Source: Francisella philomiragia subsp. philomiragia ATCC 25015 (GTDB taxonomy: Bacteria > Pseudomonadota > Gammaproteobacteria > Francisellales > Francisellaceae). From it: a stretch of DNA of 64,000 bases. Under the pieces are notes generated by a model. That model did no database searches and had not been told where the DNA came from. It saw only the letters and a program-made list of their open reading frames with translations. Where the stretch lies: the NCBI RefSeq assembly GCF_000156715.1, contig NZ_DS999316.1:635859-699858 (forward strand). The letters run 5' to 3'. The first letter of the stretch is position 1, and the number at the start of each line of letters is the position of its first letter. Of the stretch, positions 16,112 through 55,185 are shown one piece after another. Made by a program: the position numbers and the translations under genes.

Positions 16112-16192
16112 AAAAATTATTATCAACAAGCAAAATTAACAGCATAAACATAAGTTTATGTATAACGATCATGCTTTTATAAAAATAAATAA

Positions 16193-16268
16193 TGGTGGGT
16201 AGTACAGGATTCGAACCTGTGACCAATTGGTTAAAAGCCAACTGCTCTACCGACTGAGCTAACTACCC
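16193..16268 (-). tRNA. tRNA-Lys (UUU), copy 2
   Basis: On the minus strand the sequence folds as a standard 76-base tRNA: acceptor GGGTAGT pairing with ACTACCC, a D arm with AGCTCAGTCGGTAGAGC, the anticodon loop CTTTTAA (anticodon TTT), the T arm GGTTCGAATCC, discriminator A, and an encoded CCA. It is identical in sequence to the copy at 16320-16395 and lies 51 bases downstream of it, so both are probably processed from one transcript. Confidence 0.97.
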
Positions 16269-16319
16269 ATAATTACAAAATAAAATCTCTTTAATTTTGT
16301 ATTGAAATGATTAATCTAA

Positions 16320-16395
16320 TGGTGGGTAGTACAGGATTCGAACCTGTGACCAATTGGTTAAAAGCCAACTGCTCTACCGACTGAGCTAACTACCC
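16320..16395 (-). tRNA. tRNA-Lys (UUU), copy 1
   Basis: Second of two identical 76-base lysine tRNAs, with the same acceptor, TTT anticodon, T arm and encoded CCA. It is the promoter-proximal copy: a consensus promoter lies 15 bases upstream. The 51-base spacer to the next copy contains a short AT-rich inverted repeat (ACAAAAT/ATTTTGT) that could assist processing. Confidence 0.97.
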
Positions 16396-16409
16396 AAAAG
16401 ATGCTGTTT

Positions 16410-16437
16410 ATTATACTGACTAGATTTTTTGTGTCAA
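16410..16437 (-). promoter_or_regulatory. Consensus promoter for the tRNA-Lys pair
   Basis: On the minus strand TTGACA (16432-16437) and TATAAT (16410-16415) are separated by 16 bases, both perfect sigma-70 hexamers. It ends 15 bases before the first tRNA-Lys. The -35 box lies inside the last codons of the upstream oxidoreductase gene. Confidence 0.85.
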
Positions 16438-19400
16438 CACTTTATGCTGTTTTTTTCTATTTAATTCCAAAATTTCTATAGGGTGTTTGATTGTATGGCC
16501 TTCCATACGCTTTACTTGACATCTACATGAAAATCCTGTTGCGATTACAGACCTAATTCCACTTTCTTTAATTTTGTCTTTCCAGCTTAAATTATAAATA
16601 TGCTTTGATGTATCGATATGCTTAGTCTCATGACCAAAGCTACCAGACATACCACAACAACCAACTTTAGCAATTTTAGTTTCTACCCCAAAATGCTTAA
16701 ATATTTTTTGCCATTGCTCTATCGAAACAGCAGATAATGATTTTTCTGTACAGTGATTAAATAAATTAAACTCTTTATCTAGCATTTTGCTCATGGTCGG
16801 TAAAGTATCAAGTTTTGTTATTAACCACTCTTGTATTAGTTTAACTTTGAATCTTACCTTATCACCACAGATCTTTTTGTATTCATCTCTATAAACAAGA
16901 GTCATTGCTGGATCGACACCAATCATTTCGACTTTTGTTTCTGCTATTTGGTTGTATAGCTTAGTAGCTTTGATAGCTTGCTTTTTAAAGTACTTAAGGA
17001 AACCTTTGACATGTGATGGCTTACCATTTACTTTAAATGGAGCAAAATAAACCCTAAAGCCTAAAGCTGTCAAAAAGTCATATAATGTCAAAACTATATG
17101 AGTATCATATAAAGATGTAAATATATCTTGAACTATACAAACAGTTTTTTTCTTTTGCTCTGTAGACAGATTTCTCATCTCTTCGAGATTAAACTCTGGA
17201 GCACCTCTTTTTTTAAGTTCTGATCTTAGATTTAATGAACTAATAATTGGAGTATCCGCAAAACCAACCAAGTTAGTCAACCCAGCCCTAACAAATTGAA
17301 TATTAAAAATATCATTATATATTTTTGGCATATACAAATTGATACTCAGCAATGATTCACTAAATTTAACAAAATAATCCAAGCCAGGACGTTTATATTT
17401 AGAGTGATAGTGATATAAAAATTGTGATTTCATCGTAGGAATATCAACTTTTATTGGACATCCAGATACACAAGCCTTACACCCTAAACACTTATCTAGT
17501 GAGTCATATACTTGATGTGAGAAATCATCTGGATATTCTTCTAACTTATCAAAACCAGTGTTATAAACTTTATCTTTTGTTGAATACCCTGCTGCTGAAA
17601 GCTGATTAAGCCACTCACGTAATACTGCTGACCTACCTTTTGGTGAGTATAACCAGTTTCTACTAGCTTTGGCTGATGGACATATTACAGTATCTAAATT
17701 ATAGTTTAGACATTGTGAATTACCATTACAGTTATATGCTCCAGAGAATTGTTCGCGCATTTCTTTTGGCACTTGCTCATCTGAATAGCCTCTAAATGGC
17801 CCATCTACTTTTACAAGCTTATCTTTACTACCTGTTGGAACAGTAATCTTACCAGGATTAAGTTGATTATGTGGATCAAATACTTTTTTGATATGTCCTA
17901 ATGAATCATACAGCTCTTGACCAAAGTACTCTTTGATGTACTCACTTCTATAACCATGACCATGCTCACCACATAAGACTCCACCATACTTCTTAACAAG
18001 ATCACTAACTTTTTGGATAATTTGTTTGACCTTTTGAGAATCTTCAGCTGAAGACATATCTAGCGCTGGTCTTACATGCAGACAGCCTACATCAACATGA
18101 CCAAACATTCCGTATTTAACACCATAAGAATCTAACAATACAGTTAACTCTTTGATATAGTCTGCTAATTTTTCAGGAGCCACTGTCGTATCTTCAATAA
18201 AAGGTATTGGTTTACGATCTCCTTTCATAGCACCAAGTAGACCTACACCTTTTTTTCTCAACTCCCAAAGACTATCCATATCTGTTTGACTTTCTGTGAA
18301 ATGAAACACTGCTTGCTTTTCTAACAGTTTTCTTTCTAGACGAGAAGTCATATTATCTAACTCATGTTGACTATCAGCAATAAATTCAACTAAATTTACA
18401 GCCGCTACATTTGTAGAGTTACTACCCTTTTCAAGCATATACTTTATTTTATGATAAACCTCATCACCCTTTGCAATCTCAATAATATTATTGTCTATAG
18501 TCTCTATAGCAGATGGGTTAGATGATAATAAATCTCTAGCAGCTCTCAATGCGTCATCAAAACTACTATATGAAATTGCAAACAGTGCTTTAAATTTAGG
18601 TTTTTTAGTTAGTTTAAGTTTCAGCTCAGTAACAAAAGCTAATGTTCCTTCGGAACCGGATATTAAATAACTTAGATTGACCGTATTATCTTTTTTATTA
18701 TAAGTTTTAGCTAGATTATATCCCGTCAGATAGCGGCTTAATTTAGGAAACTTCTCCTCGATTAGCTCATACTTATCTATAATTTGCTCAACAACAGTTG
18801 AGTATATATTTTTCTCAATATCATTTAACTTATTTTCATTAAGATCACTTAACTTAATTTTTTTAGTAGATAATTTCTGCCCATTTACTAGAGTACACTC
18901 TAATTCTAAGACATGAGCACTTGTACGCCCATATATTCTAGAACCTTTACCACATGCATCAGTATTTACCATACCACCCAAAGTTGCTCTATTACTTGGT
19001 GATAAGTTCGGTGCAAAGAAATATTCTGAGTCGGCTAATGTATCATTTAACTGATCAAGTACAACACCTGGCTCTACTTTGACATATTCATTATCAAAAT
19101 CTACCTCTAGAATATTATTCATGTATCGACTAGTATCAACAATAACACCAGCACACAATGAATGTCCAGATGTACCTGTGCCACCGCCACGAGGTGAGAA
19201 TTTAAGCTCTTGATATTCTTTTTTGCTTGCTAATGCAAAGATTCTATTTACATCATTTTTATTACATGGAAAAACAACAAGCTCAGGAACAACAAAATAT
19301 ACACTATTATCCATTGATGATGATATTCTCGAAGCATAGTCAGAATGTATATCACCTTCAAATCCTTTTCCTCTTAGCTCCTCAGCAAAAGCATTAATCA

Positions 19401-42707: not shown

Positions 42708-45700
42708 CTATCCCATTAAAGTTAGTAGATTAGCTATAGAGTTAGAACTTTCAGTTTCTATTTTAAGTAGATTATACAATATCTTGCAGAGTTCCTCTTT
42801 ATCAATACTTAATAAATCTTCCTTAGGAACCTTATAAATACAACAATCATTAACAATTGCTTCTACGGTCAGGAAGTATTCAGAGTTACAAATACTATCG
42901 ATCCCTATATGATCATTGTCTGCTACTATACCAATATTACTTTGCCAGCCACCTGGGGAAGTAATATTAAGCGAAGCAAAACCTCTTTGTAGTAAATACA
43001 AACTATCTGCTTTTTCACCAGTTTCTATAATATGCTTACCTGTATCAAAACTATATAACTTCGCTTTTTTAGCTAATTTCATAACAGTCTCTTCAGAACA
43101 TTTATTAAAGATTTCAAATTTTTTAAAATCTTTCATCCTTGAACTATAAGCATCCTTAACCATATTAGCAATATTTAATGGATTGATTTCTGTCCATTTA
43201 AATCCTAATCTGTCTAATACTTCACTAGTATAATTCTGTTGGATAGTAAACGTTGTATGATCTCCATCTCCTAACCAACCATAGTGCAACATAAAGTCTT
43301 GTATATAAGCCGAGAAAGTTGCAAGATTATATTTATTACGAATACTATTAACAAAATCAACAAAAGAAATCCTTTCTATAGATAATCCGAGTTGATTATC
43401 TATAAGAATATCATCTAGATTAGTTATATTATTACTATATGTGTGATAAATACCATTGTATAAATTCTTCTTATCAAAGATAGTACATATAGCTCTAGCA
43501 GTATCATTAATGCATGACATCTCAGCTGAATATCCATCAAAAACTTCTCCAATATTCAAAATTGATGTCACTGTTTGAAAGAAACCATTATCTTTCAAAT
43601 TTTGCTGATGTTTTAGAGTCTCTGAATTGTATACTAAGTTACCTACACGATATATATTTGCATTGATTCCCTCACTTCTTGCTTTAACAGTTTCATACTC
43701 ACCCTCTAATTTTGTTTTAATATAAACACTATCTATACCTTCTAATTTAGGAATATCTGCCTCGTTAAAAACAATATTTTTCTCTTGATATGATCCAAGT
43801 TCACATACAGAGCGAGTCGATATATAGTGGAATGATATTTTTTTATTTTGCCTTGATATATCTAATAAATTCTTCACAGGTAAAACATTATCATTATAAA
43901 ACTTTTCATATTCACCATAATGACTTACATTAGCTGCAGTATGTATAATAGACTGAATATTCGTTAATGTATCAGAATAAGCATTATCACTTAGCCCTAA
44001 ATTGTCTTTAGATAAATCCCCAGCATATATTTTTATACTGCCATCTTCGAACTTTTTATTCAGTTTGTCGCCAAAGTAGTAATAAAGTTTTTCTTTGGTG
44101 CGCTTAAGGGCATCATCATCATCTTTTCCTCTTACAATGGCTATTATTCTTTTATTTATTTTTATTAACTCATTTAGTATATGGCCTCCTAGAAAACCAG
44201 TAGCTCCTGTTACAAGAACAGTATTAACATCATCAAGCTTAGATATATCAACAGAATCTAACTTATCATATAAGTACTCAATCCTTTTATTTGCATTTAT
44301 TTCTAAAGCTACTAACTCTCTACTTTGCTCACCAGGGTTACTTTCATTTGCTAAGATAATCTGATCAAATTTCAGATTAATATCAAACTCATTAATATTA
44401 ACATTCTCAGTAATATTTCGAATAGTCTTATAATCAAATATATCTGATATTGATAATTTAAGACCTTCAGATTGTAAGGCTGAAATAACAGCTATTGCCT
44501 TAATTGAATTTCCTCCGATAGAAAAGAAAGAATCATCAATTCCTATTTGATTAATTCCTATAATATCAGACCATATTGTAGCTATTTTTTTCTCAATCTC
44601 ATTTCTTGGAGCAATATATTCAGATTGTAAAGCTGACAAATCTGGTTCAGGTAAATTTTTTCTATCAATCTTACCATTTGGCGTTAATGGAAACTTATCA
44701 AGCTTAACGTAAAGATCTGGAATCATATAATTAGGCAATTGTTTAGCTAATTCCTCTTGAATTAAGATATTATCGAAGTCACTCTCAGCAGTATAATATC
44801 CACATAGATACTTATTGTTATTTTTATCATCTAAAGCTAAAACTACTGCATCTTGTATCTCTTTAATATTTGCTAATCTTGTTTCAATTTCTCCTAACTC
44901 CATACGATAACCACGAATTTTAACTTGGAAATCAATACGCCCGAGGAACTCAATATTGCCATCACTCTTCCACCTAGCTAAATCTCCAGTACGGTATATC
45001 CTCTCATCTAAAACATCGTGAAACATGAAGACTTTTTCAGTCAACTCAGGTTGATTCAGATATCCTTTTGCTAATCCATCACCTGCTATACATAACTCTC
45101 CAGGTACTCCTATAGGACAAATATTAAAGTTTTTGTCCAATATATATACTCTATAATTTTTTATAGGTTTACCTATTGGAATATTTAGATAGCCTTTATC
45201 TAAATTTATTGTAGTTGCATAAACTGTTGCTTCAGTTGGACCATATGCATTTACAAGCTGATATGAAGATGGCTGATAATGTTTCAGTTTATCTCCAGCT
45301 GTTATCAAATACTGCAAACATGGAACATCTTTATTTGCAAACTGCTCATAGATTGCTGGAGGCATAAATATATGCGAAATATTATTTTTGTTTATATATT
45401 CAGCTAAAGCATCTGGCGATAGCCTTAATGATTTATCAGAAAAATGTAAGTTAGCTCCAGATACTATAGTTGGAAATATTTCAGATATGGAAACATCAAA
45501 TGCGACTCCAGCATATTTTAAAATTTGACTATCACTTCTAACGTTATACTCATCAATGTACCAATAACAAAAATTACTTAAAGCTTTATGTTGTACTTCT
45601 ACACCTTTCGGTTCTCCAGTAGAACCTGAAGTATAAATAACATAAGCAGGCTGCTCAGTGGAAACTCTAACGCTAGGCTTTTCTGAACAACTAGTATCAA

Positions 45701-48700
45701 TACGATCATCTAAACAGACAATATTTCCTTTATAATTCTGCTGAAGCTCAGAAGATATATATTCTTTATTAGATAGTAAAATTTTAGCAGAACTACTTTC
45801 TAAGATTTTTATTTTTCTATCAAGGGGAAACTCTGGAGATATTGGTACATAAGCCTTTCCACTTTTTAATACTCCTAAAATAGCAATAATCATATTACTG
45901 TGATTATTATCACTCAATATAGCAACAAAATCTTCTTTGGTATTACTCAATAGATAATTTGCTATCGCATTAGCCTGCTCATTTAACTCTTGATATGTTA
46001 AAACTTTTCCCTTATAAGTTAGAGCTATGTTAGTAGGATATTTCTCCACAATTTTATCAAACATATCAATAACTGTTTTATCTTTAGGATAGTTAATATG
46101 TGTATCATTAAACTCATTTAATATAGTCTTTTTTTCCTGAAGCCCAATTAACTCTAGATCTTTTAACTGTTTGCTCTTTTCACTATTAACTATCAGCTTA
46201 AGTAAATTTAAATAATAATTTAAAAAGTTTTCTATAGTAGTAGATTCAAAGAGCTCTTTTTTATACTGTATAGTAGCCTCAAGAGAATCATTATTTGTGC
46301 TTTGTAGTGTAAGAGTAAGATCAAACATAGACTCTTTGACTCTTGGTAAGTCAACATCCACCCTAAAACTATTACCATTATATTTTAAGTTTTTTTCTAG
46401 ATAATTAAAAAAGAAGTTTATAAGAGGTAATCCTCCAGAGCTACTTTTAATATCAGCATCTTGAACTAACTGTTCAAAATTGTAATTCTGATTTTTTAAT
46501 AAATTAAGTGATAGACTCTTTATATTATTAAAATATTCAGAGATAGTTCCAACATCATCAATCTTAACTCTGAAAGGTAAGGTGTGTACAAACATGCCGA
46601 TATGTTCAGATATGCAAGAATTTGTTCTTCCTGTAGTTGCTGTACCAACTGTTATGTCATTTTGCCTTGAATATCTTGATAGAAGTAAACTATATACTCC
46701 CATCATCAACATATATGGTGTAATATCAAGTTCCTGACAGTAAGAAAATATTGTTTTTTTTAAGTTATCATCTATTGATTTACTCAGGTAATTTGCCTTA
46801 CTACTCATATTAGATGACTTTAAGTAGTCAAAAGGAAACTCAATCTCACTCGCACCATCAATTTGTTTAATCCAATAATCTCTAGTGTTCTTATATGACT
46901 CTGATTTAATATAGAAATTCTTATACCAGTATGCATAATCTTTATATTGCACACTAAGCTCTCCAAGATCTATACCATCATATAGATCAAATAACTCTCG
47001 AACAAAAGGTTCTACTGAAGTGCCATCAAATATAATATGATGAAAATCAAATAGTAATACATGATAATCTCTACTTATTTCTAATAAACAAACTCTAAAT
47101 AATGGTGTTTCTGAAAGTTTAAAAGGCTTAATAAAATCTCTAATTGTTATATCAAGTTCTTCAGCAGAGATTTTCTTATATTGCTTAGATACATTAGATT
47201 TAGTATTTATATTCTGTACTACAGCATCATCAGTATATTCAAAGCTAGTTCTCAGAGATTCATGTCTCTGTATTAATTTATCTAAAGCTAAACCAATTTG
47301 CTCTTTATCAATATCTCCAAAAATTTTCAAACATAAAGGTATGTTATAAGTAGTTCCTTGATTTCCTAGAAAATCGGTTACGTATATACCTTTCTGAGAA
47401 CTTGTAACTGGATACTTATCAAGTTTAGGAGCATGTATAATCTCATGATCAGGACTTTTTTCCTGCAAACATTTTGCAAAATCCTGAATTATTGGATTCG
47501 CTAAAATATCTGCTACACTTATTTGATAACCTTTTTTTGAAATTGCTGATACTAAGGATATAGCTAGTATAGAGCTTCCACCAAGTTTAAAAAAATTATC
47601 CAACACACTTATTCTATCGATTTCAAGAATACTTTCAACTTCATTAACTATAATTTGCTCTGCTTCATCTCTTGGTGCAATATACTCAGATTGCAATGCT
47701 GACACATCTGGACTAGGTAAGCTCTTTCTATCAACTTTGCCATTAGGTGTTAATGGAAATTTTTCCATTTTAATATAAATCTCTGGAATCATATAATCAG
47801 GTAAATACTGACTTAGCTGTTCTATGATAAACTCATTATCTAAGTTTTTATCTGATATATAGTATCCACATAAGTATTTATTATTTTTATTATCATCCAA
47901 AGCAACTACAGCTACATCATCAATATTTTCAATACTCGCTAGTCTAGCTTCAATTTCACCTAGCTCAATTCTAAATCCACGAATCTTAACTTGAAAATCA
48001 ATCCTTCCTTGAATTTCAATATTACCATCTTCTCTCCAAATAGCTAAATCACCAGTCTTATATAAAATATCTTTAGTAATTCTTTGATCTCCATCATATT
48101 TAAATGGATTATCTATAAACTTTTCTTTGGTTTGATCTTGCTTATTGAAATAGCCTAAAGCTAAGCTTTCTCCAGCAATACATAATTCTCCTGGAACACC
48201 CACAGGACATAACTTTAGCTCATTATCAACAATATAAATTTGGACATTTGAAAGTGGTTTACCAACTGGTATGTTTTGATAATTTTTATCAACTTGAAAA
48301 TCTGTCACATAAACTGTTGATTCTGTAGGGCCATAGCCATTTATAAAGTTATAAGATCTTTCCGTCCATTCTTTAAGTTTTTCACCACCGACTTCTATAA
48401 AATCAAGTTGTTCATTATTATAAGCCCTTAGATACTGCTCTCCTAGCTGAGTTGTTAGGAAGCACCCTTTAATCTTATTTTTATAGAAATATTTATCTAA
48501 TTCTTCAAGAGACATCCTGACATGCTCTGGTAATATGTGAACAGTCCCACCAACTATTAAAACTGGATATGTTCCCATTATACAAGCATCAAAACTAAAG
48601 CTAGCATATTCAGCAATTTGATCACCAGATTTAAGTTCTCGCTTATCTTTATACCAATAAGAGAAGTTCATAATATTTTGATGAGATAACATAACTCCTT

Positions 48701-49262
48701 TTGGATTCCCTGTCGAACCAGAAGTATATATTAATAGTGCAATATCTTTAGTATCTACATAAATATCTCTATGATAAGTTGATTCTAAACTATCTATCTG
48801 ATCAATATCATTAAATTCACCATCAAATTTTATTTTATCAATTAATATCTTTTCTGAAATCAATGTAACGGCTTGTGCATCATCAAGCATATATTGCACA
48901 CGCTCAAGAGGATACTTCTCATCTATACAAATATATGTATACCCAGCCTTCCATGCTGCAAGCATACTTGCTAGTATTTCTACTCTACGAGTCATATAAA
49001 TAGCAATAATATCTAGTGAGTTTTGCTTTTTTTGGGGTAATGAATTTGCGATTTTATTAATTATTTGATCAAATTGTTTATATGTTAAGCTTTTCCCATC
49101 TGCAACTATAGCTATATTATCTGGATACTCATTTACTGTTTTTTCAAATAAATCAATAGTGGTTTTATTTCTAGGATAAGCTGTATACGTATTATTAAAT
49201 TTATTTAATATTAGATTTTTATCTTCTTTAGATAATAAAGAATAGTTCTCATTATTTTTCAT
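42708..49262 (-). CDS. Dimodular non-ribosomal peptide synthetase A-T-C-A-T-R with C-terminal cNMP-binding-like domain
   Basis: A 2184-residue synthetase. Approximate domains: A1 15-515 (IYTSGSTGNPKG), T1 525-595 (LGGSSILAI), C 610-1040 (HHIIFDG, canonical HHxxxDG), A2 1070-1530 (IYTSGSTGEPKG), T2 1545-1610 (IGGNSIKAI), thioester reductase 1680-2040 (GATGFLGG; YIKTK as YxxxK), and a cyclic-nucleotide-binding-like fold 2055-2184. There is no initial C domain, so A1-T1 loads the starter residue. The product is predicted to be a dipeptide aldehyde released by NADPH, which could cyclise to a pyrazinone as with AusA. Both A domains have the Asp expected for an alpha-amino acid; specificities are unresolved. 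ATG at 49262 (GGAG 7 bases before) is preferred to TTG at 49277. It overlaps the upstream phosphatase gene by 11 bases. Confidence 0.93.
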   Translation of the reverse strand: MKNNENYSLLSKEDKNLILNKFNNTYTAYPRNKTTIDLFEKTVNEYPDNIAIVADGKSLTYKQFDQIINKIANSLPQKKQNSLDIIAIYMTRRVEILASMLAAWKAGYTYICIDEKYPLERVQYMLDDAQAVTLISEKILIDKIKFDGEFNDIDQIDSLESTYHRDIYVDTKDIALLIYTSGSTGNPKGVMLSHQNIMNFSYWYKDKRELKSGDQIAEYASFSFDACIMGTYPVLIVGGTVHILPEHVRMSLEELDKYFYKNKIKGCFLTTQLGEQYLRAYNNEQLDFIEVGGEKLKEWTERSYNFINGYGPTESTVYVTDFQVDKNYQNIPVGKPLSNVQIYIVDNELKLCPVGVPGELCIAGESLALGYFNKQDQTKEKFIDNPFKYDGDQRITKDILYKTGDLAIWREDGNIEIQGRIDFQVKIRGFRIELGEIEARLASIENIDDVAVVALDDNKNNKYLCGYYISDKNLDNEFIIEQLSQYLPDYMIPEIYIKMEKFPLTPNGKVDRKSLPSPDVSALQSEYIAPRDEAEQIIVNEVESILEIDRISVLDNFFKLGGSSILAISLVSAISKKGYQISVADILANPIIQDFAKCLQEKSPDHEIIHAPKLDKYPVTSSQKGIYVTDFLGNQGTTYNIPLCLKIFGDIDKEQIGLALDKLIQRHESLRTSFEYTDDAVVQNINTKSNVSKQYKKISAEELDITIRDFIKPFKLSETPLFRVCLLEISRDYHVLLFDFHHIIFDGTSVEPFVRELFDLYDGIDLGELSVQYKDYAYWYKNFYIKSESYKNTRDYWIKQIDGASEIEFPFDYLKSSNMSSKANYLSKSIDDNLKKTIFSYCQELDITPYMLMMGVYSLLLSRYSRQNDITVGTATTGRTNSCISEHIGMFVHTLPFRVKIDDVGTISEYFNNIKSLSLNLLKNQNYNFEQLVQDADIKSSSGGLPLINFFFNYLEKNLKYNGNSFRVDVDLPRVKESMFDLTLTLQSTNNDSLEATIQYKKELFESTTIENFLNYYLNLLKLIVNSEKSKQLKDLELIGLQEKKTILNEFNDTHINYPKDKTVIDMFDKIVEKYPTNIALTYKGKVLTYQELNEQANAIANYLLSNTKEDFVAILSDNNHSNMIIAILGVLKSGKAYVPISPEFPLDRKIKILESSSAKILLSNKEYISSELQQNYKGNIVCLDDRIDTSCSEKPSVRVSTEQPAYVIYTSGSTGEPKGVEVQHKALSNFCYWYIDEYNVRSDSQILKYAGVAFDVSISEIFPTIVSGANLHFSDKSLRLSPDALAEYINKNNISHIFMPPAIYEQFANKDVPCLQYLITAGDKLKHYQPSSYQLVNAYGPTEATVYATTINLDKGYLNIPIGKPIKNYRVYILDKNFNICPIGVPGELCIAGDGLAKGYLNQPELTEKVFMFHDVLDERIYRTGDLARWKSDGNIEFLGRIDFQVKIRGYRMELGEIETRLANIKEIQDAVVLALDDKNNNKYLCGYYTAESDFDNILIQEELAKQLPNYMIPDLYVKLDKFPLTPNGKIDRKNLPEPDLSALQSEYIAPRNEIEKKIATIWSDIIGINQIGIDDSFFSIGGNSIKAIAVISALQSEGLKLSISDIFDYKTIRNITENVNINEFDINLKFDQIILANESNPGEQSRELVALEINANKRIEYLYDKLDSVDISKLDDVNTVLVTGATGFLGGHILNELIKINKRIIAIVRGKDDDDALKRTKEKLYYYFGDKLNKKFEDGSIKIYAGDLSKDNLGLSDNAYSDTLTNIQSIIHTAANVSHYGEYEKFYNDNVLPVKNLLDISRQNKKISFHYISTRSVCELGSYQEKNIVFNEADIPKLEGIDSVYIKTKLEGEYETVKARSEGINANIYRVGNLVYNSETLKHQQNLKDNGFFQTVTSILNIGEVFDGYSAEMSCINDTARAICTIFDKKNLYNGIYHTYSNNITNLDDILIDNQLGLSIERISFVDFVNSIRNKYNLATFSAYIQDFMLHYGWLGDGDHTTFTIQQNYTSEVLDRLGFKWTEINPLNIANMVKDAYSSRMKDFKKFEIFNKCSEETVMKLAKKAKLYSFDTGKHIIETGEKADSLYLLQRGFASLNITSPGGWQSNIGIVADNDHIGIDSICNSEYFLTVEAIVNDCCIYKVPKEDLLSIDKEELCKILYNLLKIETESSNSIANLLTLMG

Positions 49263-51159
49263 TACATTTAACTCCAAAAAATTTAATTAATATAGCTGTT
49301 TTATCATCTTGAGCTAAAGATTCATCTTCGAATAAGTTTATATCTTCAAGTAATTTTTCTAATTGGTTTGAAGCTGAAAGCTCTGAGCTTGTTATCAAAA
49401 TATTTTTTATTTTATCAATACCATAAAAACCTTGTGATGATTTAGTTTCTGATAGTCCATCAGTATATAAAAGCAAATTCTTGCAATTTACCATATCAAC
49501 AATATCTTCACTATATATAGCATTTGGATCTATACCTAAAACTATATAACCATCATTCAAAGATGCAAATTGATTATCTTTTAACACAATAATAGGTTTA
49601 TCATGCCCTGCATTTGATATATATATTTTGTTATTTTCAAAATCAATTTTCATACATATACAACTAATAAACATATTATTCTTATTATGCTTACACATAT
49701 AACTATTTAATTTTGTAATTATATCTGCACAAGAAATTTCCGACGAAATAAGAAACCTAAATCTAGCTAGTAAAAACAAACTGAAGATACTCGCTGCTGA
49801 ATTTTTTCCCATCGAATCACCAACTAATATCCATAGATTATTTTTTTTATCTCTTCTTATATCATAGATATCTCCACTCAAATCTTCTGCTGAACTATAA
49901 TGTGTTGCTATATCTAAATTTTTAATTTGTGACATATCAATAGTATCAGACATAAACATTTCTTGAATTTGTTTAGCTAAATATAGTTCTGATTTTTTAA
50001 TATTGAATTTTTTTTGAATTTCTATATATCTAAGGATGTCTGTTCTCATCTTTTCTACAGATTCAAATAGTTTTTGAATTTCTATACTCTGTATATTTGA
50101 TGATTCAATTTTTTTATTAAGATTTTTATTATCTACAATATTCTCTAGATGATTAGATAAATCAACTAATGGCAAAATTAATTTATCTATTTTCTTACGC
50201 AAAATTTTTGATAAAAGAATATTTAAAGCTATTAGTAATAAAATAAGAATAATAAAAACAGATAAAACAATAAGTATTAATTTAGTTAAATCGATCTCTG
50301 TTATGATATCAATACTCCCAAAAACAAGACTTTCTTTACGATATATTCGTAACCCATCAATATACCACTCACCATTGACTGGTTGTATTAAAAAATTATC
50401 GTACAAAAGCTTAGGAGTTAAATCACTATCAAACTTAGCGTATGCTGGTCTATCATAGTTATCTTCAACACGCACAAAGACACTTGTATCACTAAAATCT
50501 ATTTCTGACTTTATTAAATTAACTATATCTTTTATATCAATATCTAATGCAGCTACTGCATATATTTCATGATTACTATTAGTTACAGGAAATGAATAAG
50601 TTGCTGTAAATTCGCCAACTTCTTGACTAAATAAATTACTTGTAGGAAGATCAATAAATGCTTTTTTCTCAATCAATGGTTTTTTAAACCATTCTCTATC
50701 ATAATAATTAGTTCCATATTTATCATATATATCTGAAAGCTCTTTTAATTTCACTGTATTATTATATTTATAAAGATAAACTCCTCTAGCTCCATATTTA
50801 GGAGTAATCGCGTAAGCAATACCAAAAATATCCGCATGAGTTAGCAACACATCTTTTGTAAAAGAGATAAGCTGGTCACTAATATAAGGCTTGGATATAG
50901 TAATGTCCGAATCAAGTAAATATAAAGTTTTAATCTCAGCTGAAGATGATGCTATTTCGCGTTCAATTCTATCTGATACTTGATCTATCGATGCATACAT
51001 TCTATTAACTTTAACAGTTTCTTTATATGTAAAAAAAGAAAACAATGATGCTACCAATACTAAAAATATTATAAATATAAGTATATTAATAAACCAATAA
51101 GCTGGCCTATGAAAATACCATGATAAGTTTCTATGAGTATGTTTATTATTAATTTTCAT
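49252..51159 (-). CDS. Membrane sensor with PP2C/SpoIIE (RsbU-like) serine phosphatase domain
   Basis: A 635-residue signalling protein. It has a membrane helix near residues 30-50, a periplasmic dCACHE-like sensor (YDREWFKKP and EFTATYSFPV are typical), a second helix near 290-318, a linker helix, and a SpoIIE/PP2C phosphatase domain about 400-635. Phosphatase motifs seen: SAEDLSGDIYDI, LVGDSMGKNSAAS, NAGHDKPI, LLLYTDGLSE and DDKTAILI. It would dephosphorylate the STAS protein two genes upstream on receipt of an extracellular signal. It shares a 4-base overlap with the ATPase gene and an 11-base overlap with the NRPS gene. Confidence 0.9.
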   Translation of the reverse strand: MKINNKHTHRNLSWYFHRPAYWFINILIFIIFLVLVASLFSFFTYKETVKVNRMYASIDQVSDRIEREIASSSAEIKTLYLLDSDITISKPYISDQLISFTKDVLLTHADIFGIAYAITPKYGARGVYLYKYNNTVKLKELSDIYDKYGTNYYDREWFKKPLIEKKAFIDLPTSNLFSQEVGEFTATYSFPVTNSNHEIYAVAALDIDIKDIVNLIKSEIDFSDTSVFVRVEDNYDRPAYAKFDSDLTPKLLYDNFLIQPVNGEWYIDGLRIYRKESLVFGSIDIITEIDLTKLILIVLSVFIILILLLIALNILLSKILRKKIDKLILPLVDLSNHLENIVDNKNLNKKIESSNIQSIEIQKLFESVEKMRTDILRYIEIQKKFNIKKSELYLAKQIQEMFMSDTIDMSQIKNLDIATHYSSAEDLSGDIYDIRRDKKNNLWILVGDSMGKNSAASIFSLFLLARFRFLISSEISCADIITKLNSYMCKHNKNNMFISCICMKIDFENNKIYISNAGHDKPIIVLKDNQFASLNDGYIVLGIDPNAIYSEDIVDMVNCKNLLLYTDGLSETKSSQGFYGIDKIKNILITSSELSASNQLEKLLEDINLFEDESLAQDDKTAILIKFFGVKCNEK

Positions 51160-51554
51160 AATAATATTTCTAAATAATTTATATTATATTCATCTGTTCT
51201 CATATAGTCCCATCTATCACAAAAATTTTCTATTAGACCAATCCCATGACCTCCAATACTATGCTTTGTATGCTCTTTAGAGTATTTTTTATAGTCAAAA
51301 TAAGATGTATTATCTTTTAAGGAAAATTTTATACAAGAACCATAATTTTCAATGAATATCTCAAACTCTAGAGAAGTATAATTTAGAGTACTTCCATGAT
51401 ACCAACAATTAAGCATTAATTCTTCATAAATTAATTTAATTTTAAACAACTCGACATCACCAACTTTTCCTTCTCGTAAAATTACATCAATGTCATAAAT
51501 GAAATTATTTATGTCTTCTAGATTGAAACATTCTCTTGAGATATTTAACTTCAT
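51156..51554 (-). CDS. RsbW-like ATP-binding anti-sigma/serine kinase protein
   Basis: A 132-residue GHKL ATPase. The N box reads IYEELMLNCWYHG and the G box reads GGHGIGLIENF, as in RsbW/SpoIIAB-type kinases that phosphorylate STAS proteins and bind a client. There is no transmembrane segment. Position between the STAS gene (overlap 4 bases) and the phosphatase gene (overlap 4 bases) gives a complete partner-switching set. No sigma factor is encoded in the window, so its client is unknown. Confidence 0.87.
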   Translation of the reverse strand: MKLNISRECFNLEDINNFIYDIDVILREGKVGDVELFKIKLIYEELMLNCWYHGSTLNYTSLEFEIFIENYGSCIKFSLKDNTSYFDYKKYSKEHTKHSIGGHGIGLIENFCDRWDYMRTDEYNINYLEILL

Positions 51555-51892
51555 TTTAATTGATCTTTTACTTCTTCAAAATTTTCGTAAACAGGAATAA
51601 GTTTTATAAAACCAGATACTCTTAAAACTTCTCTAACTAAACTAGATGGTTTTAATATCAACATTTTTTTATTATCGAAAGATAGATCTTTAAAAACTAT
51701 TATTAAAGATCTCAAGCCAGCACTACTTAAATAAGATAATTTTGAAAAATCAAATATAAGATTATTTTTTTTATCTATTGATAATTCTTTTATAGTTTCA
51801 TTAAATTTATTACATGATGCTGAATTTAATTCACCATCCAAATAAATAATCAAAGCATTATTTTCTTCATTAGAAAATGTTATTTCCAACAC
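51551..51892 (-). CDS. STAS domain anti-anti-sigma factor-like protein (RsbV-like)
   Basis: A 113-residue STAS protein. The pattern LIFDFSKLSYLSSAGLRSLI carries the conserved serine of the SSAGLR loop that RsbW-type kinases phosphorylate. The start is uncertain: GTG at 51892 has AAAGGG about 9 bases upstream and is preferred; TTG at 51901 and TTG at 51889 are alternatives. First gene of the partner-switching/NRPS run, 142 bases downstream of the phosphopantetheinyl transferase gene. Confidence 0.87.
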   Translation of the reverse strand: MLEITFSNEENNALIIYLDGELNSASCNKFNETIKELSIDKKNNLIFDFSKLSYLSSAGLRSLIIVFKDLSFDNKKMLILKPSSLVREVLRVSGFIKLIPVYENFEEVKDQLK

Positions 51893-52043
51893 TATATACA
51901 ACCCTTTATTAAATAAATTAATTAAACCAATTTACCTGATAAAAAAATATAATTAAATATATTTTTATAGAATTTTAATATTTTTTTTAAAAGAGCTTTG
52001 AAATTTTATAGTAAAATACATAATATTTTTTTAGACATAACTT

Positions 52044-52703
52044 TTATATAAAACTATTATTTGTCTTACAAACAGACACCTTATATTCTGGCATTAATTT
52101 ATTTAAAATTATATTAGTACTTAAATTATCAACTTTATAATCCGAAAATATACTAATATCTAATATATTTATTTTTTTAACATCATAATACAAACCAGTT
52201 CCTAAACATTTAATTATTGACTCTTTAATATTAAATACATCAAAAAAAAAGTGTAACTGTTCTTTATGACTTTTAAGAGAATTATAATAACTGATTTCTT
52301 CATCATGCATTATAATACTTTTTAAATCTAAATGATTAATATTGCTATCAATATACTCAATATCAACACCAATATTACTCACTTCACTAATTCCTACTAA
52401 TATATGATTATTAGAATATGAAATACTAAAACCTATATTATAATCATCTTTAAGCATTGGCTTTTTGTATGCTCCATATTCTAATTCAAAGTTATTAATG
52501 TTATAACGATCATTAAGATAGTGATATAAGAAACTTCTAGCTAGTAACCTTTTAAACCTATCATTTTCAAATTTATAAGTTTGTATCTCAATTTTTTGCT
52601 TTTTGGGAATAATATTAAAATCATATTCTAAAGAATTTTTGTTTGTGTCTAATAAAAACAACTCAATATCATCAGAAATATGACTAATCTTTTCAAACTT
52701 CAT
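52044..52703 (-). CDS. Sfp-type 4'-phosphopantetheinyl transferase
   Basis: A 219-residue enzyme that loads phosphopantetheine from CoA onto carrier domains. It shows the N-terminal KRLLARSFLYHYL segment, the GVDIEYID metal-binding motif near residue 110, and the FNIKESIIKCLGTGL motif (WxxKESxxK equivalent, with Phe-Asn-Ile in place of Trp). The likely clients are the two T domains of the adjacent NRPS. The intergenic 51893-52043 and the 262-base gap upstream to katG are very AT-rich and show no further gene. Confidence 0.86.
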   Translation of the reverse strand: MKFEKISHISDDIELFLLDTNKNSLEYDFNIIPKKQKIEIQTYKFENDRFKRLLARSFLYHYLNDRYNINNFELEYGAYKKPMLKDDYNIGFSISYSNNHILVGISEVSNIGVDIEYIDSNINHLDLKSIIMHDEEISYYNSLKSHKEQLHFFFDVFNIKESIIKCLGTGLYYDVKKINILDISIFSDYKVDNLSTNIILNKLMPEYKVSVCKTNNSFI

Positions 52704-52892
52704 AAACTATTACATTTTACGATAAATATACAATAATATATTAAACTTATAGAAATGCGAAGAATCTCAAATATAAACTGATATTCATACAATCTATAAG
52801 AATTTGTTATAGAGCTTATAACTATATACTATTTGACTAGACTTTTTCATTTACATACAATCACTTGTAGACCTTAATTTTATTTTAAAGAT

Positions 52893-52930
52893 AAGATTCG
52901 GTTCAGTTTAGAAAATATAAGAAGAATCTT
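52893..52930. promoter_or_regulatory. Inverted repeat upstream of katG
   Basis: AAGATTC (52893-52899) and GAATCTT (52924-52930) form a perfect 7-base inverted repeat separated by 24 bases, just before a possible -10 (TATTAT, 52932-52937) and the katG Shine-Dalgarno. It could be an operator or a weak hairpin. It does not match the OxyR site pattern I know, so function is open. Confidence 0.25.
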
Positions 52931-52965
52931 GTATTATAAGTTAACTTTATAGCGAGGAAATCACC

Positions 52966-55185
52966 ATGCTAAAGAAAATTGTAACAGCATTAGGAATGTC
53001 TGGAATGCTACTAGCAGCCAATAGTGCTATAGCTGATGACAAAAATACCGAAATGGCTACACCTCAAAGTGTAGATTTATCGCCATTACGTAATCTAAAT
53101 AAGCTTGATAGTCCAATGGGGAAAAACTATGACTATCACCAGTCTTTCAAGAAGTTAAATACTGAAGAACTTAAAAAAGATATACAAGATCTTTTGACCC
53201 AATCTCAAGATTGGTGGCCTGCAGATTTTGGTAATTATGGTCCTTTCTTTATTAGATTATCTTGGCATGATGCTGGTACTTACAGATTAGCAGATGGTCG
53301 TGGTGGTGCTAATCGTGGTCAGCAAAGATTCTCTCCGCTAAATAGTTGGCCAGATAATGTTAACCTTGATAAAGCAAGACAGCTTTTATGGCCAATCAAG
53401 CAGAAATATGGTGATGCTGTATCATGGTCTGATTTGATTGTTTTAGCTGGTACTGTTTCATTAGAATCAATGGGTATGAAGCCGATTGGTTTTGCCTTTG
53501 GTAGAGAAGACGATTGGCAAGGCGATGATACAAACTGGGGTATATCTCCTGAACAACTAATGTCTAGTAATGTCAAAGATGGCAAGCTTGCTCCAGCTTA
53601 TGCAGCAACTCAAATGGGTCTGATATATGTAAACCCTGAAGGTCCAGATGGCAAACCTGATATAAAAGGTGCTGCTAGTGAAATTCGCCAAGCTTTTAGA
53701 GCTATGGGTATGACTGATAAAGAAACAGTAGCTCTTATTGCTGGTGGTCACACATTTGGTAAAACTCATGGTGCAGTTCCAGAGAAAGATATCAAAAAAG
53801 ATATTGGTCCTGCTCCGGATAAAGCACCTATCGAGCAACAGGGCTTAGGATGGCATAATAGCTACGGTACTGGCATGGGTGATGATACTATGGGTAGTGG
53901 TCTTGAAGGATCTTGGACTTCTACACCAACTTTTTGGAACCATGACTTCTTACATAACCTATATAACTTGAATTGGGAAAAAACTCTTAGCCCTTCTGGA
54001 GCTCATCAATGGACTCCTACAAATGCTAAGCCAGAAAATATGGTTCCTGATGCTCATAAGCCAGGTGTAAAACATAAACCTATAATGTTTACAACAGACT
54101 TAGCATTAAAAGAAGACGATGGATTTAATAAATATACTCAAGAATTCTACAATAACCCTCAAGAATTTAAAGAAGAATTTGCTAAAGCATGGTTTAAATT
54201 AACGCATAGAGATATGGGTCCAAAATCTAGATATATAGGCCCTTGGATTCCTGAACAAAACTTTATATGGCAAGATCCTGTACCTGTTGCTGACTACAAG
54301 CAAGTATCAGCTCAAGATATCGCTCAACTTAAGCAAGATATCATAAAATCTGGATTAACGAATCAACAACTTATAAGAACTGCTTGGGATTCAGCTTCTA
54401 CTTATCGTAAAACCGACTATAGAGGTGGATCAAATGGCGCAAGAATTGCTTTAGCTCCTGAGAAAGATTGGCAAATGAATGAACCTACTAAACTTGAAAT
54501 TGTTCTTGCTAAGCTTAAAGAGATTCAAACCAACTTTAATAATAGCAAAACTGATGGCACCAAAGTATCATTAGCTGACTTAATAGTACTAGGTGGTAAT
54601 GTTGGTGTTGAGCAAGCAGCTAAAGAAGCTGGTTATACTATAGAAATACCATTTGTACCAGGTAGAACAGATGCTACGCAAGCTCAAACTGATATAGAGT
54701 CTTTCAACTATCTAAAAACAAAAGCTGATGGTTTTGTAAACTATAGTGACGGTAGTCTAGCATCTAACAAGCTACCTCAAGCACTAGTTGAAAAAGCAAG
54801 CATGCTTAATCTAAATATCCCTGAAATGACTGTCTTGGTTGGTGGTATGCGTGCACTAAATGTAAACTACGATAACTCTCAAGAAGGTGTATTTACCAAA
54901 ACTCCTGGTCAATTAAATAACAACTTCTTTGTAAACTTACTTGATATGTCTACAAAATGGGAAAAATCTGACACAAACAATGGTGAGTATATCGGTATAG
55001 ATAGAAAAACTGGTGCACAAAAGTGGACTGCTTCTTCTGTAGATCTAATCTTTGGTTCAAATTCTGAACTTAAAGCTGTGGCTCAAGTTTATGCTGAAAA
55101 TGGTAATGAGCAAAAGTTTGTAAACGACTTTGCAAAAGCTTGGCATAAAGTTATGATGCTTGGCAGATTTGATGTTCAAGAATAA
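52966..55185 (+). CDS. katG: Catalase-peroxidase KatG, exported
   Basis: A bifunctional haem catalase-peroxidase that destroys hydrogen peroxide. It has 739 residues with the two-domain duplication. The distal site [11 protein letters not shown], the Tyr in [12 protein letters not shown] and the Met in AFRAMGMTD can form the Met-Tyr-Trp adduct; the proximal haem His lies in [12 protein letters not shown]. An unusual feature is the N-terminal Sec signal ([25 protein letters not shown]), implying periplasmic or secreted enzyme, as described for Francisella KatG. AGGAAA precedes the ATG. It stands alone. Confidence 0.97.

What the first reader, a model, noticed from the sequence alone, without database searches (positions are those of the whole stretch)
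42708..52703. Candidate pyrazinone-type NRPS locus under a partner-switching signalling module
Seen: a PPTase gene, STAS, RsbW-like ATPase, RsbU-like membrane phosphatase and an A-T-C-A-T-R synthetase in one strand, with overlaps of 4, 4 and 11 bases between the last four. Known: A-T-C-A-T-R enzymes with a nearby PPTase (AusA/AusB in Staphylococcus aureus) make dipeptide aldehydes that become pyrazinones. Inferred: an extracellular cue read by the dCACHE-like sensor releases the ATPase, and this controls synthesis or activity of a peptide-aldehyde or pyrazinone signal. Coupling such a switch to an NRPS, rather than to a sigma factor gene, is unusual.
Basis: partly seen in the sequence, partly recalled or inferred. 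Interest (0 to 1): 0.88.

Follow-up and report, generated by a model that had tools for sequence, protein, structure and literature searches.

The report
Peptide synthetase with built-in signal switch
A bacterial genome, probably a Francisella, holds a two-module peptide-making enzyme that ends in an added CRP-like domain and lies in one gene row with the three genes of a signalling switch; the switch likely turns this enzyme on and off directly rather than through a sigma factor, which would be a new way to control such an enzyme.

Summary
In detail: PPTase, STAS, RsbW-like ATPase, membrane SpoIIE/PP2C phosphatase and an A-T-C-A-T-R synthetase lie on the minus strand at 42708-52703 with overlaps of 4, 4 and 11 bases. 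A distant relative of this synthetase, at another place in a same-genus genome (G016), is followed by the same STAS-ATPase-phosphatase trio in another order; a third set probably shares one contig. Among 17 same-genus genomes SpoIIE occurs only in the two with the tailed synthetase. Only two sigma-70-type factors were found. Best reading: an enzyme-gating partner switch, as in Pseudomonas SiaABCD, whose likely target is the tail of a peptide-aldehyde synthetase. Binding, product and cue are untested. Against it: in another family four of four tailed synthetases showed no such trio in the flanks held, so the tail can work without it. AusA/AusB equivalog cut-offs are not met; a pyrazinone product is a guess.

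The parts
52044..52703 (-). 4'-phosphopantetheinyl transferase gene (219 aa)
   Evidence: ACPS 45 bits over cut-off 25; AusB equivalog not met, 53 of 225. Not present among the listed ORFs of the G016 locus.
51551..51901 (-). STAS protein (116 aa, TTG start), antagonist / phospho-switch protein, motif YLSSAGLR
   Evidence: STAS 58.7 over 22.6; TIGR00377 ant_ant_sig 58.1 over 53.45; related to the G016 STAS, 33 of 98 identical, 14.5 sd over shuffles.
51156..51554 (-). RsbW-like HATPase_c_2 protein (132 aa), presumed kinase of the STAS protein
   Evidence: HATPase_c_2 34.7 over 27.4; relative P0142 51.3. The pairwise match to the G016 ATPase does not exceed shuffles.
49252..51159 (-). Membrane sensor phosphatase (635 aa): N-terminal helix, extracytoplasmic-looking alpha/beta region, second long helix, C-terminal SpoIIE/PP2C
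50476..50781 (-). dCache-like part of the sensor region (residues 127-228)
   Evidence: dCache_1 24.7 bits, below cut-off 45; relative P0122 has MCP-like_PDC_1 24.3, below 27. Inconclusive.
42708..49262 (-). NRPS A-T-C-A-T-R plus CRP-fold tail (2184 aa from ATG 49262; 2189 aa from TTG 49277)
   Evidence: Pfam; carrier cores GGSS 566 and GGNS 1588, C motif HHIIFDG 746, R motifs TGATGFLG 1690 and YIKTK 1852.
43617..44213 (-). Thioester reductase domain, Pfam stretch (residues 1689-1887)
   Evidence: NAD_binding_4 142 over 20.1.
42804..43052 (-). CRP-fold (cNMP_binding) tail domain of the NRPS, Pfam stretch (residues 2076-2158)

Best explanation
This is a two-module reductase-ended peptide synthetase with an added C-terminal CRP-fold domain, encoded in one gene row with a sensor phosphatase, an RsbW-like ATPase and a STAS protein, and the trio likely gates the synthetase directly by docking one of its small proteins on that tail. 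Proposed steps: a membrane phosphatase would sense an outside cue and dephosphorylate the STAS protein; the ATPase would rephosphorylate it; the free partner would bind the tail and change the activity or oligomeric state of the synthetase, much as SiaC does to SiaD. The PPTase would load the carriers and the reductase would release a dipeptide aldehyde, which might cyclise to a pyrazinone. Shown: the genes, domains, overlaps, tail, recurrence of the linkage, and the missing extra sigma factor and class I/III cyclases. Inferred: every binding, phosphorylation, product and cue.
Against: No binding or kinase evidence. Four of four tailed NRPSs in family f69 (G229, G099, G429, G433) showed no STAS-ATPase-SpoIIE trio in the flanks held, so the tail has some use without the trio. 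G016's NRPS frame is interrupted, its cNMP score is below cut-off (19.6/27.5), its ATPase is just below (26.7/27.4) and its STAS just above (22.9/22.6). The full-tail match of G016 is not independent, since A1 holds its near relative P0016; the direct window-G016 tail comparison is 30 of 131 identical, 10 sd over shuffles. The window-G016 ATPase comparison equals the best shuffle. Gene neighbourhood also fits transcriptional control.
Confidence: 0.45

Rival explanations
1. The tail is a ligand sensor of the synthetase (a cyclic nucleotide, another nucleotide, or the product), and the trio does something else or controls only the amount of enzyme.
For: Tailed NRPSs occur without a trio in the flanks seen in f69; three of those four (G229, G099, G429) keep the cassette Glu; the fold is that of ligand-binding CRP/PKG domains.
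Against: No class I or III cyclase and no other PF00027 protein found in this genome; cassette Glu and Arg absent here; trio and tail coincide in 2 of 2 same-genus genomes. Other cyclase classes and c-di-GMP were not searched.
Confidence: 0.27
2. The ATPase is an anti-sigma factor for the housekeeping sigma factor, so the trio acts on transcription, including that of the NRPS.
For: In Chlamydia RsbW binds the primary sigma factor sigma-66 (abstract of PMC4552016). Two sigma factors are present as possible targets.
Against: The trio is limited to genomes with the tailed NRPS in the genus and is next to it in both; no dedicated sigma factor was found.
Confidence: 0.15
3. The block is a mobile accessory cluster in which signalling and synthetase genes travel together without direct contact; the tail only stabilises or dimerises the enzyme.
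For: Low G+C (27.6% against 32.2 and 31.7% in the flanks); inserted between add and katG, which are neighbours without it in G014, G006, G002 and G016; transposase-like ORFs beside the G016 locus.
Against: Conservation of tail sequence with divergent A domains; the trio kept with a tailed NRPS across deep divergence and reordering.
Confidence: 0.13

Closest known systems
SiaABCD of Pseudomonas aeruginosa (PMC8457831, PMC7647112: abstracts and outlines seen)
   Different: Target is a diguanylate cyclase bound on its stalk; here an NRPS with a CRP-fold tail. Pfam gives STAS and HATPase_c_2 here; that SiaC and SiaB belong to other Pfam families is recalled.
RsbU/RsbV/RsbW partner switches (review PMC8256260: abstract and section 6 read)
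   Same: Same three domain types; non-sigma or unknown outputs are known (SypA, BtrV, RbaV, HmpV).
   Different: No B/F-type sigma factor found; partner genes flank an NRPS.
TciK/TciR of Vogesella indigofera (PMC12826045: abstract and four other passages seen)
   Same: An RsbW-like domain regulates production of a pigment (indigoidine, an NRPS product by recall).
   Different: The RsbW domain is fused to a receiver, the authors find no RsbV homologue, and the target is unknown; no tail on the synthetase is mentioned in the passages seen.
AusA/AusB aureusimine synthetase and PPTase (PMC12153313 abstract)
   Same: A-T-C-A-T-R architecture with a nearby PPTase; NCBIfam AusA model is the top hit.
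   Different: Far below both equivalog cut-offs (1326.5/2500 and 53/225); extra CRP-fold tail and signalling trio.
CRP/PKG cyclic-nucleotide-binding domains
   Same: Sequence family and predicted fold.
   Different: Fused to an NRPS, no helix-turn-helix, cassette Glu/Arg absent here.

Membership tests
AusA-type pyrazinone synthetase | A-T-C-A-T-R domain order | tested here: met
   Pfam stretches and motifs.
AusA-type pyrazinone synthetase | NCBIfam NF047350 equivalog cut-off | tested here: not met
   1326.5 bits against 2500.
AusA-type pyrazinone synthetase | Makes phevalin/tyrvalin-type pyrazinones | not testable with these tools
   No product data. Specificity positions read by eye with recalled numbering (A1 DAMFEGGVY, A2 DVSFIAAVY) give no firm substrate.
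AusB PPTase | NCBIfam NF047349 equivalog cut-off | tested here: not met
   53 bits against 225.
Rsb-type partner switch | SpoIIE/PP2C phosphatase + HATPase_c_2 kinase + STAS protein encoded together | tested here: met
   All three over Pfam cut-offs, overlapping genes.
Rsb-type partner switch | Cognate B/F-type sigma factor | tested here: not met
   Only two Sigma70_r2 proteins in the genome, frames of 578 and 308 aa, neither in the window.
Rsb-type partner switch | Phosphorylation of STAS by the ATPase and reversal by the phosphatase | not testable with these tools
   Motif YLSSAGLR holds the serine that is usually phosphorylated (recalled); invariant PP2C Asp/Gly/Glu columns kept in the alignment of 13 phosphatases.
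SiaABCD-type enzyme-gating switch | SiaA-like membrane PP2C | tested here: met
SiaABCD-type enzyme-gating switch | Switch protein binds and activates the enzyme | not testable with these tools
   No complex prediction or binding assay available.
Cyclic-nucleotide-binding (PF00027) domain | Pfam cut-off | tested here: met
   35.0 over 27.5 in the window, 33.0 in P0002, 34.7 in P0003; below in P0016 (16.8) and G016 (19.6).
Cyclic-nucleotide-binding (PF00027) domain | Phosphate-binding-cassette Glu and Arg | tested here: not met
   Aligned residues Ile and Tyr in the window against Glu and Arg of a PKG domain; alignment uncertain by a residue or two there.
dCache sensor | PF02743 cut-off | tested here: inconclusive
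   24.7 bits against 45; structure search was filled by the phosphatase domain.

The most novel reading that the evidence does not exclude
A self-contained chemical circuit: a peptide-aldehyde/pyrazinone signal synthase carries a CRP domain that has lost its nucleotide and been turned into the docking port of a partner switch, while the switch's membrane phosphatase reads the synthase's own exported product, so that an NRPS assembly line is gated post-translationally by its own signal.
Probability: 0.12. Interest if true: 0.92.

Novelty: new variant of a known kind. Interest (0 to 1): 0.72.

Why it matters
NRPS control is usually described at the level of transcription or carrier loading (general knowledge). 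A synthetase with a regulatory CRP-fold tail wired to a phospho-switch would be a case of signal-gated catalysis in an assembly line, gives the orphan 'no sigma factor' partner switches a concrete type of target, and makes the question 'what does the switch bind' testable with four small proteins. The tail also occurs in other lineages, and related reductase-ended NRPSs carry or adjoin PAS/kinase modules, which hints that this class of enzyme is often tied to signalling.

Tried and rejected
AusA/AusB membership: tested by NCBIfam, cut-offs not met. Canonical sigma-factor partner switch: no B/F-type sigma factor found. Ordinary CRP-cAMP control: no other PF00027 protein and no PF00211 or PF01295 cyclase found in the genome; other cyclase classes not searched. 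Plasmid relatives: 85 records match the G016 R-plus-tail query, none covers 80% of it, and the 20 listed stop at residue 349 or before of 476. Search for phosphatase relatives in genome contigs gave one unrelated locus (L006). An attempt to find an Enterobacterales centre for a wider search failed: a piece of G279 has no match in E. coli genomes. Neighbourhoods of the Dongshaea, Vibrio profundum, Azotosporobacter and unnamed tailed NRPSs (P0004-P0013) could not be fetched. Promoter scan of 51500-53000 gave 16 sites against 15.6 expected and no terminator, so it says nothing on transcript limits. The structure search of the whole phosphatase model says nothing on the sensor part. Protein search scored only the 7981 candidates that share most words, and only 7997, so absence of a relative there is weak.

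Full report
What is there. Five genes on the minus strand, in transcription order: a PPTase (52703-52044), a STAS protein (51901-51551, TTG start), an RsbW-like ATPase (51554-51156), a 635-residue membrane protein ending in a SpoIIE/PP2C phosphatase (51159-49252) and a 2184-residue NRPS (49262-42708). The last four overlap by 4, 4 and 11 bases; the PPTase stands 142 bp ahead. Pfam confirms A-T-C-A-T-R and each signalling domain above its cut-off, except the dCache sensor (24.7 against 45).

Recurrence. In 30 genomes of the family, two have the whole tail: G000 (the window) and G016; eight other matches were partial, five to the reductase end and three to short stand-alone frames. In G016 the tailed NRPS (its frame interrupted) is followed by STAS, ATPase and phosphatase, so the order is NRPS-STAS-ATPase-phosphatase rather than STAS-ATPase-phosphatase-NRPS. 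Scores in G016 are modest: STAS 22.9/22.6, ATPase 26.7/27.4, cNMP 19.6/27.5, SpoIIE 81.2/25. Pairwise against shuffles, STAS (33 of 98), phosphatase (167 of 557) and tail (30 of 131) are clearly related; the ATPases (23 of 85) are not separable from shuffles. A third set is probable: NRPS P0002, phosphatase P0122 (54% identical) and ATPase P0142 (56%), the latter two and P0002 named from unclassified Francisella, each with the longest contig of 119086 bases; its STAS gene was not seen. SpoIIE occurs in 3 of 30 family genomes: G000, G016 and G028; within the 17 of the genus it is exactly the two with the tail, 1 in 136 for a random pair, not corrected for kinship.

History. The block fills the 10,285 bases between add and katG. 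In G014, G006, G002 and G016 add lies next to katG without it; in G005 and G010 another gene of the left flank lies there; katG was found in 14 of 17 genomes and only about 1.5 kb on each side was held. The block has 27.6% G+C against 32.2 and 31.7% beside it. Together with the different place in G016 this suggests gain by transfer (inference). Against P0002 the tail (76%), R (77%) and second carrier (80%) are much better kept than the two A domains (47% each): what is made may vary, the tail does not.

Product. Carrier, condensation and reductase motifs are intact, so a reductively released dipeptide is likely; whether an aldehyde, alcohol or pyrazinone results is unknown. AusA and AusB equivalog cut-offs are missed.

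Literature. Seven searches aimed at this coupling were read as listings; none of the listed papers describes a partner switch on an NRPS or a cNMP-fused NRPS by title or abstract. Listings were partial: 20 of 42, 20 of 74, 16 of 16, 15 of 23, 12 of 15, 2 of 2 and 12 of 54. One hit that names both terms proved to list PF00027 as a transcription-factor family (PMC10663231, one passage). The library lacks most subscription journals. Nearest finding: an RsbW-like response regulator, TciR, that affects indigoidine production (PMC12826045, passages). Chlamydia RsbW binds a primary sigma factor (PMC4552016 abstract), which keeps the sigma-factor rival alive.

Verdict.

Noticed in passing
L020 (1814-3019), L023 (272-1450), L024 (266-1489), L025 (2127-3341), L067 (9283-10515): Beside reductase-ended NRPSs without the tail, in four family genomes (G024, G021, G027, G026) and on a Cysteiniphilum plasmid, lies a PAS-domain protein (Pfam in 5 of 5 scanned; a histidine-kinase ATPase domain only in L023). 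G028 (L026) looks alike by eye.
   Followed up: partly
P0014, P0019, P0035, P0036, P0049, P0052, P0053, P0054: Eight of 120 listed relatives have PF02518 histidine-kinase ATPase domains in the same protein; P0014 reads C-A-T-R-PAS-kinase with a weak receiver match. Two of the eight-protein set's kin are named Neisseriaceae MAGs in the listing (P0035, P0063).
   Followed up: partly
L045:5639-6730 (G229): An amino-acid-type ABC ATPase with a C-terminal HATPase_c_2-like stretch (22.7/27.4) next to a tailed NRPS.
   Followed up: no
L019:6547-13150 (G016): The NRPS gene of G016 is split over two frames; transposase-like ORFs lie downstream (16128-17018, 17814-18812). P0016 is a relative in one frame.
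   Followed up: no
G000 contigs C1, C11, C13, C16: Four further condensation-domain places in the window's genome, three of them starting within 300 bases of contig position 1 (C1, C11, C16).
   Followed up: no
   Followed up: no
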